DNA from: Datnioides undecimradiatus
Taxonomy: Eukaryota; Chordata; Actinopteri; Lobotiformes; Datnioididae
Length of the DNA stretch: 64,000 bases
Assembly (NCBI GenBank): GCA_008933995.1
Contig: WARS01000030.1
Location: forward strand, 3,611,804-3,675,803
Reading direction: 5' to 3'
The position numbers and the translations under genes were made by a program. The notes under the pieces are model-generated. The model had not been told where the DNA came from, did not search any database, and saw nothing but the letters and a program-made list of their open reading frames with translations. This document shows positions 28,938 to 43,700 of this stretch, in pieces; the stretch's first letter is position 1, and each line of letters starts with the position of its first letter.

Positions 28938-31791
28938 TTACCCAAGTAAATCATCCATCCAGCTGCTAGCTGTGACAGTGTTTGCTGCTGTTTGCTCAGT
29001 GCTGTAGTCAGACACTAAGAGACTATCCACAAATAAATTTACGTCACTTGGCTCTGACACTGGCAGCGACTGTGGTTCTGATGCAAAAATGTCTTCGGCA
29101 AAAAGATCTACCTGAGCTGAAAGAGCAGCAGTAGAAGATGTATTTGAACCAAGGAAATCATTCAGGGAGTTAGAAGTGCCTGAGGTGGATGGCAGCACTG
29201 CAAACATATCTGTACTGTTTGACATGTCTCCAAAGATGTCATCAGAAAAGGCAGATGGCTGGTTTGTGGAAGCATCAGCTTCCCTTTGATCAGATAAGTT
29301 GACAGTAGTTGACTGAGTGAACAGAACATCATTTGAGCTGAATATGTCAAAGTTGGTACCCTGCTCTCTTGTCTGGCTGCTTGTACCAAAAGGGCTTGAG
29401 GTTTGATCCCCAACTTGGTTTATGGATGCTGAATTGGGTACAATAAGCTGATCTGTCATGCCAGGCATCACATCATTCTCAGTCGGTATTGGATGAGTGT
29501 CAAGCAGGTTAAAGGTATCAGCCGAAGGAGCTGCAGATAAAGCTGTGTCACTCAAAGAAGATGAAAATATGTCACTGGAGGTGTTCACATGGTTGACATC
29601 AGAAAGTTCTCCACCACACAGGTCTCTACCGTCTACATTTGGGACATCAAGCAGTTCATTTTGCTTTTGAACAGATTTGTCAGGATTTATCTGAATGGCC
29701 AAAGCGTCAACAGGAGCAGAACAGAAACTGTTTTCAAAAATATCATCATTAAATTGAGCTTTCAAAACCTCATCATCTCTTTTCTCTGCTAAGAGAGTGA
29801 TTGGTTCCTCAGATGCGAAGCTAACTGATTGCACAGCAGTGAGAGGATCAGTAACAGATGGGACTGTGGCCTCAGTGCTTTGCAAATTTGATTCCTGCTC
29901 ACTGGTTGGATTTGCATTAGTTTGTTCCAGGGTTGAATGGTCATCTTGTGTTTCAGTTGTTAAAGACTTGAGCAGGTCGGATGGTTCTGTGGATTTGCTT
30001 ACAGCCTGTTTTTTGTTGCTATCTGGTGTGTTGGGATCAGCAGATTTTTCCTCTGTTTGCTCCCCAACTTCTTGTTCCTGGGGTAGAACATGAAACATGT
30101 TGCCTTCCTTTTTCATCTCCTTCATGATGGTGTCTTTTACATCCTCTGCTGTTGTGTCATCAGCAGGTGTTTTGTCATTTCTTTCATCTTTTGCAGCCAG
30201 TTTCATGGTGTCTTCAGCTTTCTCTGAGGATGACTGAAACAGTCTTCCCAAGAGTCCACCACCGGGTTTGACATCTGGTTTCTTGGTGTCTTTTGGTTCA
30301 GTTTTGTTTGTTTTGTCATTTCCACCTGAAGTAAAGAGTTTTGACAGAGGGCTTTTTCCTTTGGACCAGGATCCAGGTTTGGCTTTTGTCTTCTCAGCCT
30401 GTTTTGTAGATCCCTTCAGAGAAGTTGTTCTTGCAACGGGCTTCTTCTGATTACCATCGTTTTCATGACCGTTGGCTAAGTCAGTCTCTTCAAATTGATT
30501 CTTCTTCCTGTCAAGACTGACCTCCTCTGTGCTCAGATGTTCTGCTGGACAGTGTGGAGCAGTATTTTCTGATTCACATGGGTTGACAGAATCTTGTGGA
30601 ATTTTGTGCGATACCTCCAGTGGCTCCTGGTGTTTCACTGTTTCTTCAGTTGAGTTACAGTTCTCAGTGAAACTCTGAGTATCGAGTGATTTCTCAACCT
30701 TGTCTACACCTCTATGCAGAATTGTCATATCAGTCTGTGGGATATCTTGACTGCTCTCCACTTTAACATCAGACTCTAGGTTGGACATCTTGTTTGTTTT
30801 TCCAAGGCATTTATATTCAGGGATTTCAAGATACACCTCACTTTTGCCCTGTTCTTTGCTGAACTCAAATGACATATGTTCAGAGTTGCTTTTTTCCTTG
30901 GCATCTTTTAAATCCTTGGATTGATTTACTGCACTCTGTTCAGTTTGGTCTTGAATACAGGAGCCCAAGTTGTCTTTAGCAGTGGCTCCAGTGGACAGTT
31001 GTGGGGATAGGTCATACTGAGCGGCATCAACATTTTGTGCAAAGCGTACAGCCTTCTTAGCTTTGTTCTGATGAGCATTAAGACTTTTAGATGCTGGATT
31101 GTAGCTTGTTTTTGAGGTGGGTGCCAAATTATTCTGCTCTGTTTTTTGGTTTGAGACAGTAATTCCCTTTTCTAGGGTGAGCCCAGAAAAGTTACATGCT
31201 CTTGGAGAGGTGCTGTCTGGGAAATGCCCTGCTGAATTTGTTGGGTCACTCCTGGATTTTGTTTCCTGTGAAAACACCATCTCAGCTGAATTATAACATG
31301 TTGTCTTAGATTGTTCCTTCACCTCTGAAGTGAAGGAACTCGACAATATTTTCACTTTATCTTTCTTTATTTCACCACTATGATTGATCTTTATGTGGTT
31401 ATTGTCTGAAGTAAATGCTTTGCTAATGTCAGATATCTTATTTATTACATATGTTTGCTGTGCTGTACTCTTCTTTTCTGGTGGCCAGGTCATGTTAAGT
31501 TTGCCCTTCATATCCACACCACTCTTGAATCCCAGCTCTTTTGCAGATGACTTTGTAAGAAATACACCAGCAGAGGACTCTCTGGAGCTGTCAGACTTGT
31601 TTAAGTTGCTTTTTGGTATTTTGGGAGTGGTCACAGCATCTGACTCATCTTTGCCTTTTTTTTTCTGAAGCCACTGATCTTTATGTTGCTTGTGCCCAAA
31701 TCCTTCATCATAGTTTCCTTTTCTTTTAAAAAGCTGTTGGTAGTGAGAAATGCAATAGAACTCTCCATACAGAGATGAGTAGTTGTGCATG
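28938..31791 (-). CDS. xirp1: xirp1 last exon, second half of LIM domain and long acidic tail
   Basis: A 2854-nt exon. It starts [20 protein letters not shown] and [11 protein letters not shown], which complete the LIM finger as in EPLIN. The tail of about 900 residues is Ser/Thr/Asp/Glu-rich and mostly disordered. Visible short motifs are [11 protein letters not shown] (EPLIN has a similar AWPP block), [10 protein letters not shown] (fits a PP1 RVxF docking site), [10 protein letters not shown] and [10 protein letters not shown], and, over the last 250 residues, repeated acidic-Phe motifs ending WMDDLLG. Acceptor TATTGCAG at 31792-31799; poly(A) signal at 28880-28885. The partners of the tail are unknown. 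Confidence 0.88.
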
Positions 31792-40700: not shown

Positions 40701-43700
40701 GTGGAGAAATAATGTGGCACTGAACAGAAAGCAGTTTAATTGTTTTGAAGGTCTTGTGTCTAAATGAGAATGTCTTACGTTTTTATAGTGGTGCTTTTTA
40801 AGTACTAGGTCAAATTCAACTTCAAGCAAAATAAATGTTACACAGCACACACACTCACAGCACCCACAGACTGTAGCAAAGGATGCTAATGGAACTATAC
40901 AGTACCTTACTGTTTTTAGCCCTCGTTCTCGGGGTAGTGATGATTTCCTGTTGAACAACAGAAAAATAATGTTTGATTTAGTTCCCTTGCATCATGTGCA
41001 AGTTACAATATTTCCTACATAAGCATATATCAGCACTTTTGCTGCATTAAAGAACACAATAGATTTATTGTAAAATGTAGAGTCGCTCCAATTGTGACAG
41101 AGTGTACTGGTCATTCCACACTGAAATCCTTGACCTCAGTGTGTAGAGAGGAATGAGAAGCATTTCAGGAACTCACTGGCTGTGTTGAGCCTCCCGTGGA
41201 GTCGATAGCTGCTGCTCTTGACAGATAGAGAGCTGATCTGTCTCTCACTGTGGAGGAAGTAGATATCCTGTCTCTGGTTTGTCTTGTTGGGTCGCCCCCC
41301 TTAGTCACTGCTGTGCTATATTTGTCATCTGTAACAGAAACAACAAAATGAATCCAGTGTCATATCAAGGTAAACTTTTGGTAAACAATTCGCTCAATAA
41401 GATAAAAATAACTTAGCTAAAATAATATTCAGATGGCATTGCTTGTTTACACATACTTGTAAAAGTAGGACTCAGATGTATCCCAAAATAAGGAAAGCAG
41501 AATGTGAGTAGTGCTGGCAATGAGTATAATGATAACACAATGTGTGTGCGTGCGTGTGTGTGTGTGTGTGTGTGTGTGTATTTATAGTTATGTTCAGGCT
41601 GTGTGTATTTATAGTGATGTTGGAAACTTTGTTATCATCGTTGTAGCTCCCTGTTAACTTATGGAAACTATTTCATCTGCAACCAGGCCTACACTTACTG
41701 TATCACACACAGGGATTTTGAGTAGCTCAGGGTAATTATTATTTCAATAACCTCTGTATGATTTAATCTAGACAAACATTATAGGTCAGTTTTAGAAGGC
41801 TTTGATCCCAGTAGCTGACAAAACAAATAGGCCCACACATGCTGCTTGCTTCCCGGGACCCTCACCAAACCGCATGCCATGGTCTGACCATGACACCCAA
41901 GAAGAAAAAAAAAAAAAAAAAACAGCAACTGCTAGCTCAGCTGGAGTGACACAGATTGTTTGCACATTGTTTGCGAGAGCTCTCTGCCATCAAACCATCA
42001 ACACCTGACCAAAGGAATGTGACTGTCTGCCCCTATGAACAATTTGGAAATGATCTAAGCTCAGCGAGCATTACCTCACCTGAAGCTGTTTTCCCCCATA
42101 ACTGTACAGGAAAAACAGTTCAATCTGTCAGTATATATGGATGTGATAGATTTAGAGACTATTTCAACAACAGCTCTGTGAACAATATGGTAAGAGGTCA
42201 ACAGCCCAGTGTGTTGCCATCCAGCTGTAACTAATGGTCAGATTTGAACACACCTCCCCTTTTCACACACTAAGCCCTCGCAGCACAAAAGGATGGACCA
42301 GCAAGCTGGCGCCTCTCACGAGCCCGGACTTAAAGCATTTTCATAGATGGGTGAGCAGACAGAATGAGGCAACCGAGTGCCATGTGTGTCCCGCTGAAGT
42401 CCTCAACCACTAAACTAAGAGGTCAAACTCATCACTTATCAGCACCCCTACACTCACACATGCAGGTATCGATAACGGTGTGTAACACTGATCTGTAAAA
42501 TGCGGTTGTTACCAAAGTAAAAGTGACTCAGAGAGATTAAGCATCATCGACTTTTGATGCTTTCCTCTGTGATTCCCCACACATTAAAGTACATTTCTGC
42601 TAACATCTCTTTGATCTGGGTTAATTCTCCAGGAATGAAGAGGAGCTATTAGTGGCGCAGTAATGTGGGGGAGCTTTTTGGGTCGCTGGCAGCTGTACAA
42701 ATGGTGGTGAAATGCGGTTGGTATTTGTTCTTCACCACCACCACCACCTTCACCACCATCAGCTGTTGGCGATTGTAGCCACATTCACAGACTGTAATGA
42801 AAACCAGCATTCCAAAAGGCTGCTCACACCGAGGGGCCTCAGACCCGCAAACAGCACATCACACTTGTGTGCGTTGCACCAGTCAAAAGAAGTTCTATCA
42901 GATTTTCCTCACTGTTTTTATGTTTTATGTTATCTTATTTCATGGTTCATCATCAGTCTGATAGATGACAGAAAGAGGGAAAGCTCATGACCAAGTGTTC
43001 GTCTTGTTTGACCTCCCATTCCAGACATCTCTAAGGATAAAGGGCTGAAAATTGATAGCCACTTAAGACGTAATGAAGATGGCAGCAGCAGAGTTGCAAC
43101 ACTTTGTGACCTTGTTGAGCTCTGATATCACTCAATGTCAAGAATCTAAGAATCCCTAAGAAAAAAAGCCATAAATAAGACCAAAATGGACAGTATCATC
43201 TTAGTTTCTTAGTTTCTTTCTTTTTCTTTTTTTAGTAAATTAATCATTTATTCTAGGCTTCCATCCTTTTAACCTAACTTATAAACCTGATAATGTCTTC
43301 TGAGAAAAAAGTAAAGAGCATCCAGTCCACAACGCATTCACTCCACTTAAAGTCTGAAATCACATCGAACAGAATAGTACTGTAATATAAAACCATGTAT
43401 GGATTTAAGTAGCTTTCTTAGTAACTGCATTGGTATTTGTATTTTGTTTTACGTTAGTTGTACATTTACATACATTTTCTCTATTCAAATGAGATTAATG
43501 GTCATAATACTCACTAAAATACCCTCCGGCGCTGTTCTCTGTCTCCTTCTTGAGTATCTCTGCTGTGTTTGATGGCTGACTCTTAAGGCCCCTGTGATGT
43601 GTGATGCAGCCTGTCTCCTCTCTTAGTGCTCCTCTCTGCTTCTCAGTTCACTGCGACTGAACTCTTTCTAGTCCTGTGGCCTCGGTGACAGCTGATTTTT

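What the first reader, a model, noticed from the sequence alone, without database searches (positions are those of the whole stretch)
28938..41328. xirp1 carries EPLIN-like LIM exons that can replace the Xin-repeat exon in frame
Seen: two exons downstream of the Xin stop codon encode a complete LIM domain and a 950-aa tail, and the exon ending at 41177 (phase 0) can join either the Xin exon at 39833 or the LIM exon at 32201, both phase 0. The seven-exon sum is exactly 1233 codons plus stop. Known: an isoform without Xin repeats and with a LIM domain is described for XIRP2 in stereocilia. Mammalian XIRP1 is, to my knowledge, encoded mainly by one exon without LIM. Inference: the LIM module is ancestral to both XIRP genes and was kept in fish xirp1.
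Basis: partly seen in the sequence, partly recalled or inferred. Interest (0 to 1): 0.72.

Follow-up and report, generated by a model that had tools for sequence, protein, structure and literature searches.

The report
Fish xirp1 with EPLIN-like LIM exons
In this fish genome the muscle gene xirp1, which in people makes only an actin-binding repeat protein, still carries the coding parts of a second, EPLIN-like protein with a zinc-binding LIM domain that could be made instead, a version so far described for its sister gene XIRP2.

Summary
On the minus strand a Xin-repeat exon (39833-32832, 2,333 codons plus stop) is followed by two exons (32201-32071, 31791-28938) that encode an intact LIM domain and a long tail. 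The LIM is EPLIN-type: best matches among solved structures are LIMD2 (9.3e-30) and EPLIN (7.4e-26). The gene is most likely xirp1, judged by both ends of the Xin exon and a CSRNP1-like neighbour; the human sequences used were recalled. I add a likely 42-nt exon (40947-40906) and separate poly(A) signals behind each stop, so the isoforms would arise by a choice of last exon. Papers describe zebrafish xirp1 as one large exon (PMC3280289), human XIRP1 as coded within exon 2 (PMC13267782), and the human EPLIN class as Lima1, Xirp2 and Limd2 (PMC3305314). Thus fish xirp1 would be a further EPLIN-class gene, and the single-coding-exon mammalian gene a reduced remnant. Not shown: transcription, splicing, tissue, other species. 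No fish or other animal genome collection was available, and public annotation was not checked.

The parts
46310..46434 (-). E1, first coding exon ([12 protein letters not shown]...), ends in phase 2
   Evidence: donor GCA|gtaagt, 95th percentile of GT sites on the strand; A at -3 and G at +4 around the ATG; codon usage does not pick its frame
46003..46057 (-). E2, ends in phase 0; weakest exon of the model
   Evidence: acceptor 82nd percentile, donor 92nd; codon usage uninformative
45604..45909 (-). E3, ends in phase 0
   Evidence: acceptor 93rd, donor 99.7th percentile; its frame is the only one of three without stops
44769..44847 (-). E4, ends in phase 1
   Evidence: acceptor and donor both 99th percentile; codon usage not scored
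41177..41328 (-). E5, ends in phase 0; can join the Xin exon, E6 or LIM1
   Evidence: acceptor 99.9th, donor 97th percentile; only open frame of three, best codon score
40906..40947 (-).
   Evidence: only candidate in the E5-Xin intron at acceptor >=6.0 and donor >=4.4, and the only one on either strand of the window at its own scores (donor threshold and second set of thresholds chosen after the fact); resembles EMTTPAKQIK before the LIM exon in recalled human XIRP2
32832..39833 (-). Xin-repeat exon, 2,333 codons plus stop, begins with ATG
   Evidence: Pfam Xin 1.1e-132, 17 stretches; 25 repeat-like units between aa 106 and 1037 by a loose pattern, 21 in the whole exon by another pattern; acceptor 97.5th percentile
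32706..32711 (-). AATAAA behind the Xin stop (another at 32659-32654)
32071..32201 (-). LIM1: first zinc finger, phase 0 acceptor, ends in phase 2
   Evidence: acceptor 96th, donor 99.8th percentile
28938..31791 (-). LIM2: second zinc finger, EPLIN-like motif [23 protein letters not shown] motif, long low-complexity tail, stop
   Evidence: acceptor 99th percentile
28880..28885 (-). AATAAA starting 53 nt beyond the LIM2 stop (another at 28557-28552)
43515..43760 (-). Possible internal promoter and non-coding first exon for the Xin exon (CArG-like site, TATA-like site about 30 bp on, E-box, then a GTGAGT donor)
   Evidence: such motifs are common across the window and no test of excess was made, so a lead only
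60055..62085 (+). Neighbouring CSRNP gene, CSRNP1-like, matching pieces in three stretches
   Evidence: Pfam CSRNP_N 2.1e-22; C-terminal part z 15.4 to recalled CSRNP1 against 0.2 and 0.5 for recalled CSRNP2 and CSRNP3; tblastn pieces, in which the conserved parts do not favour CSRNP1

Best explanation
This fish xirp1 is a composite gene. Its outer frame is an EPLIN-class gene: short 5' exons, a LIM exon, and a last exon with the second zinc finger, the EPLIN-like motif and a long tail. Between the 5' exons and the LIM exons lies one large exon with the Xin repeats, which has its own stop and poly(A) signals. Splicing from the last shared 5' exon (E5, or E6) either takes the Xin exon as the last exon, giving an F-actin-binding Xirp1, or skips it and takes LIM1-LIM2, giving a Xin-less LIM protein of about 1,233-1,247 aa. 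The LIM form would, like short XIRP2, act at strained or damaged actin bundles. Shown: exons, frames, LIM identity, signals. Inferred: use of the junction, tissue, function, and loss of the outer frame in mammals.
For: Seven-exon frame closes exactly and both joins are phase 0. Intact LIM, EPLIN type. LIM2 open for 950 codons with coding-like codon use. AATAAA behind both stops. xirp1 identity: three stretches at the ends of the Xin exon score z 27, 29 and 12 against recalled human XIRP1 and 12, 12 and 1 against recalled XIRP2; recalled XIRP1 agrees with the length, both ends and the isoform C start given in PMC13267782. CSRNP1-like neighbour by its C-terminal part. Mouse Xirp2 LIM exon also starts in phase 0 in the short frame. 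LIM-bearing short forms are published for xirp2a and xirp2b.
Against: No transcript evidence. The zebrafish study, with EST, RT-PCR and 5' RACE work, describes xirp1 as one large exon with intraexonic isoforms and gives LIM forms only for xirp2a and xirp2b. E1-E4 rest on splice signals and open frames, with no homology found. Over the whole Xin exon the top BLAST score is to recalled XIRP2 (965 bits, 40.0% over 1,484) and not XIRP1 (573 bits, 42.5% over 751). The conserved CSRNP core matches recalled CSRNP3 better (64% over 50 aa) than CSRNP1 (46% over 74). The tail has no clear relative: z -0.5 to the recalled short-XIRP2 tail, 3.0 to LIMA1 and 2.9 to long XIRP2, in low-complexity sequence. 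In PMC10259482 neither full-length short XIRP2 nor its LIM alone went to strain sites, only its isolated C-terminal domain did, so the borrowed function is weak.
Confidence: 0.7

Rival explanations
1. The LIM exons are a separate gene with its own promoter between the Xin stop and LIM1, giving a LIMD2-like protein that may start at the ATG just before the first zinc ligand.
For: LIM1 has an in-frame ATG directly before the first Cys; poly(A) signals lie between the Xin stop and LIM1, and some moderate donors occur there (scores 5.2-6.7); LIMD2 is the closest solved relative.
Against: LIM1 has a good acceptor in the phase that E5 and E6 supply, the same phase as the mouse Xirp2 LIM exon, which is joined to upstream exons.
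Confidence: 0.15
2. The locus is really an xirp2-type gene and so needs no new explanation.
For: Gene layout is that of XIRP2 (short exons, large exon, two LIM exons). The whole Xin exon scores higher to recalled XIRP2 than to XIRP1, 965 against 573 bits; human XIRP1 has fewer repeats (PMC13267782). The conserved core of the neighbour is closer to recalled CSRNP3.
Against: Both ends of the Xin exon favour recalled XIRP1, and the last 233 residues match it alone; the neighbour's C-terminal part matches only recalled CSRNP1; the Xin exon ends in its own stop, unlike mouse Xirp2.
Confidence: 0.05
3. The LIM exons are a decaying relic that is no longer spliced.
For: Published zebrafish xirp1 work reports no LIM form.
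Against: All zinc ligands intact, 950 codons open, coding-like codon use, usable splice sites and poly(A) signal.
Confidence: 0.06
4. Xin repeats and LIM occur together in one protein, through a donor inside the Xin exon.
For: XIRP1 is known for splicing within its large exon; donors with exon ends at 33251 and 33153 score 8.9 and 8.4.
Against: No donor above 9 in the Xin exon; the Xin stop has its own poly(A) signals.
Confidence: 0.04

Closest known systems
XIRP2 short (LIM) isoform, mouse Xirp2 and zebrafish xirp2a/xirp2b
   Same: Short 5' exons, a skipped Xin exon, then a LIM exon and a C-terminal exon; in mouse the LIM exon also begins in phase 0
   Different: Gene is xirp1. Here the Xin exon has its own stop and poly(A) signals, whereas the long mouse form reads on into the LIM exon in another frame (PMC10259482). 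The tail differs and ends SSWMDDLLG; recalled human XIRP2 and LIMA1 end with a VEEQIKRNR-type stretch that is absent here.
EPLIN / LIMA1
   Same: LIM type, the stretch [14 protein letters not shown] after it, and a KL...WPP motif (LIMA1 recalled; LIM also from 2d8y)
   Different: No Xin exon in LIMA1 as I recall it; no N-terminal similarity found; LIM identity 34 of 66
LIMD2
   Same: Closest LIM among solved structures, 44 of 66 identical
   Different: Small protein of little more than the LIM (recalled)
Mammalian XIRP1 / zebrafish Xirp1 as published
   Same: Xin exon beginning with ATG; 2,333 codons here, residues numbered to 2,297 in zebrafish; XIRP1-type ends
   Different: No LIM module or coding 5' exons in the passages seen

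Membership tests
EPLIN class of LIM proteins | LIM domain of the EPLIN type | tested here: met
   2lzu LIMD2 9.3e-30, 2d8y EPLIN 7.4e-26, next best CRP1 1.1e-10
EPLIN class of LIM proteins | 22-residue Eplin motif directly C-terminal of the LIM (PMC3305314) | tested here: met
   [20 protein letters not shown] in that place, matching 2d8y as far as it reaches and recalled LIMA1 and XIRP2; the motif's own letters, in the paper's supplement, were not seen
XIRP (Xin-repeat) family | Array of Xin repeats in one large exon | tested here: met
   Pfam Xin 1.1e-132, 17 stretches; 25 units in the array by a loose pattern
XIRP1 orthologue | XIRP1-type N and C ends of the Xin protein | tested here: met
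   with recalled human sequences; XIRP1 recall agrees with printed ends and length. Against: the whole-exon score favours recalled XIRP2. No tree was made.
XIRP1 orthologue | CSRNP1 next to the gene, as in human (human order recalled) | tested here: met
   C-terminal part matches recalled CSRNP1 only; the conserved core alone points to recalled CSRNP3
XIRP2-type alternative isoforms | Xin exon can be skipped in frame to a LIM exon | tested here: met
   Frame and phase only
XIRP2-type alternative isoforms | Transcripts of the short form | not testable with these tools
   No RNA data held
XIRP2-type alternative isoforms | Long form reads into the LIM exon in a second frame (mouse Xirp2) | tested here: not met
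   Xin exon ends with its own stop, with AATAAA at 32711 and 32659

The most novel reading that the evidence does not exclude
The Xin-repeat unit is a gene within a gene: one exon with its own muscle promoter (near 43.7-43.5 kb) and its own poly(A) sites, lodged in an intron of an EPLIN-class gene before the XIRP1-XIRP2 split. Fish xirp1 keeps both layers; human XIRP1, with all coding sequence in exon 2, is the inner unit alone after loss of the EPLIN frame. XIRP1, XIRP2, LIMA1 and LIMD2 would then be four survivors of one gene after two genome duplications, which fits their recalled places beside the four sodium-channel gene clusters.
Probability: 0.35. Interest if true: 0.62.

Novelty: new member of a known kind. 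Interest (0 to 1): 0.47.

Why it matters
If the LIM form is made, XIRP1 joins the EPLIN class, and the zebrafish xirp antibodies, made to the large exon, and the in situ probes, designed to cover only the long isoforms (PMC3280289), would not see it. It would also bear on mutants: an allele in the Xin exon, such as the published xirp1 sa0046, could leave a LIM form intact if zebrafish has the same exons, which was not tested here. For evolution, it would explain why mammalian XIRP1 is coded by one exon, and would tie a vertebrate heart and muscle gene to an older LIM family.

Tried and rejected
Outside relatives: scans of genome contigs with the N-terminal and LIM part of the short form (336 aa) and with the Xin exon, and of viral contigs with the Xin exon and LIM2, gave 23, 11, 1 and 11 pattern matches and no relative. 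Those collections are prokaryotic and viral, so this says nothing about conservation in animals. No dN/dS or gene tree was possible.

N-terminal homology: the E1-E5 protein, or E5 alone, against recalled LIMA1, XIRP2 and XIRP1, and E1-E6 against recalled short XIRP2, gave z between -0.7 and 1.4; my impression of an EPLIN-like E5 was dropped. Tail: z 3.0 to LIMA1, 2.9 to long XIRP2 (score 114, best of 100 shuffles 108) and 0.5 to XIRP1, -0.5 to the short-XIRP2 tail; I do not count this as homology, since the tail is low-complexity. The WPP motif lies inside the alignments that run on from the LIM. Dual coding of LIM1 as in Xirp2: frame 2 is open for 24 codons, but the Xin exon does not feed it, so it was set aside. 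An internal muscle promoter is kept only as a lead, since CArG-like (79), MEF2-like (227) and E-box (111) hits are common in the window.

Literature: nine searches listed no paper that I recognised as describing a LIM form of xirp1. For one search, 30 of 35 papers were listed; for, 25 of 27; for, 10 of 20; one search found none. Passages were read in seven papers, no paper whole. Ensembl and NCBI annotation could not be checked and may already hold such models.

Structure prediction was not used: the spliced LIM protein is not letter for letter in the window.
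Full report
What is there. The minus strand between 46.4 and 28.9 kb holds one gene with five short exons, a likely 42-nt microexon, a large Xin-repeat exon and two LIM exons. With the microexon it is 3,744 nt, 1,247 codons and a stop. Both joins out of E5 are phase 0, to the Xin exon at 39833 and to LIM1 at 32201.

Is it coding? LIM2 is open for 950 codons where 1,000 order-1 simulations gave at most 278, and codon usage trained on the Xin exon picks its frame out of six. 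The zinc ligands keep LIM spacing across the splice. The LIM1 acceptor and donor and the LIM2 acceptor rank at the 96th, 99.8th and 99th percentile of all such dinucleotides on the strand, by recalled matrices. An AATAAA starts 53 nt beyond the LIM2 stop, and two more lie between the Xin stop and LIM1. E1-E4 are less sure: the E2 acceptor is weak (82nd percentile), codon usage does not pick the right frame in E1, E2 or LIM1 and was not scored for E4 and E6, and no homology was found for the N-terminal part.

The microexon. In the E5-Xin intron one candidate passes acceptor >=6.0, donor >=4.4, 20-300 nt, length a multiple of three and no stop: 40947-40906. At its own scores it is the only one on either strand of the window. 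The donor threshold and the second set of thresholds were set with this candidate in view. Its peptide [14 protein letters not shown] sits where recalled human XIRP2 has EMTTPAKQIK, directly before the LIM exon.

Which LIM? Among solved structures the best matches are LIMD2 (9.3e-30) and EPLIN (7.4e-26), then CRP1 at 1.1e-10. Over 66 positions the identity is 44 to LIMD2, 37 to recalled XIRP2 and 34 to EPLIN. The stretch after the [23 protein letters not shown], lies where PMC3305314 places its Eplin motif; [quoted passage not shown]

Which gene? The first 110 residues of the Xin exon score z 27 to recalled XIRP1 and 12 to recalled XIRP2; residues 1950-2100, 29 against 12; residues 2101-2333, 12 against 1.2 (200 shuffles each). 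The recalled XIRP1 has 1,843 residues, the two ends coded by the printed primers, and the isoform C start at 1,318, all as in PMC13267782. Against this, the whole Xin exon has its top BLAST score to recalled XIRP2, 965 bits at 40.0% over 1,484 residues, while XIRP1 has 573 bits at 42.5% over 751; human XIRP1 has fewer repeats, which lowers its total. The neighbour at 60055-62085 is a CSRNP gene. Its C-terminal part matches recalled CSRNP1 (z 15.4) and not CSRNP2 or CSRNP3 (0.2, 0.5), while its conserved core is closer to recalled CSRNP3 (64% over 50 aa, against 46% over 74 for CSRNP1), and the upstream pieces do not decide. I take the gene as xirp1.

How it would work. The Xin exon has its own stop and poly(A) signals, so the choice at E5 or E6 is a choice of last exon: take the Xin exon, or skip it and take LIM1-LIM2. 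This differs from mouse Xirp2, where the long form continues into the LIM exon in another frame (PMC10259482, passages; both frames read from the printed template). Function is borrowed from XIRP2: the short form is enriched in stereocilia, and its isolated C-terminal domain goes to strained stress fibres and pulls down monomeric actin, whereas the full-length protein and the LIM alone did not go to strain sites. The tail here is not clearly the XIRP2 tail, so this step is weak.

What is known. PMC3280289 (passages): zebrafish xirp1 is encoded by a large exon with three isoforms by intraexonic splicing; LIM forms are given for xirp2a and xirp2b. [quoted passage not shown] PMC2478706 (passages): Xin repeats were found from lamprey on and their origin is placed between the two genome duplications; the term LIM does not occur in its main text. 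Put together with the EPLIN class, the simplest history is that a Xin exon entered an intron of an EPLIN-class gene before XIRP1 and XIRP2 parted, and that mammalian XIRP1 later lost the EPLIN frame. The recalled chromosomal places of XIRP1, XIRP2, LIMA1 and LIMD2 near the four sodium-channel clusters fit this; one search for a paper on it found none.

Verdict. The sequence observation is right and a little richer than stated. The evolutionary reading is plausible and testable; the isoform itself is unproven.

Noticed in passing
28941-29780 (-), last 280 aa of LIM2: Seven D[ILVM]F motifs cluster in the last 280 residues of the tail (shuffle mean 0.39, none of 5,000 shuffles reached 7), ahead of a C-terminal WMDDLLG. 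The pattern was chosen after seeing the tail. They recall short adaptor-binding motifs (recalled, not tested).
   Followed up: partly
26558-27775: Tc1/mariner-like DNA transposon: perfect 31-nt inverted repeats 1,156 nt apart around an open 329-codon transposase frame with HTH_Tnp_Tc3_2 and DDE_3 domains, about 1.2 kb beyond the xirp1 LIM2 stop.
   Followed up: partly
12832-13296 and 20848-21363 (+): Two very similar open stretches look like first exons of a tandem pair of SLC22-type transporters (recalled look; Pfam gave no family above cut-off); a downstream piece at 23347-23973 matches SLC22 structures, best 1.2e-06.
   Followed up: partly
43515-43760 (-): GC-richer stretch (about 0.5) with a CArG-like site, a TATA-like site about 30 bp on, an E-box and a GTGAGT donor; possible muscle promoter and non-coding exon.
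   Followed up: partly
32071-32201 (-): LIM1 is also open for 24 codons in the frame that corresponds to the dual-coding frame of mouse Xirp2 exon 8; no Xin donor is seen to feed it here.
   Followed up: partly
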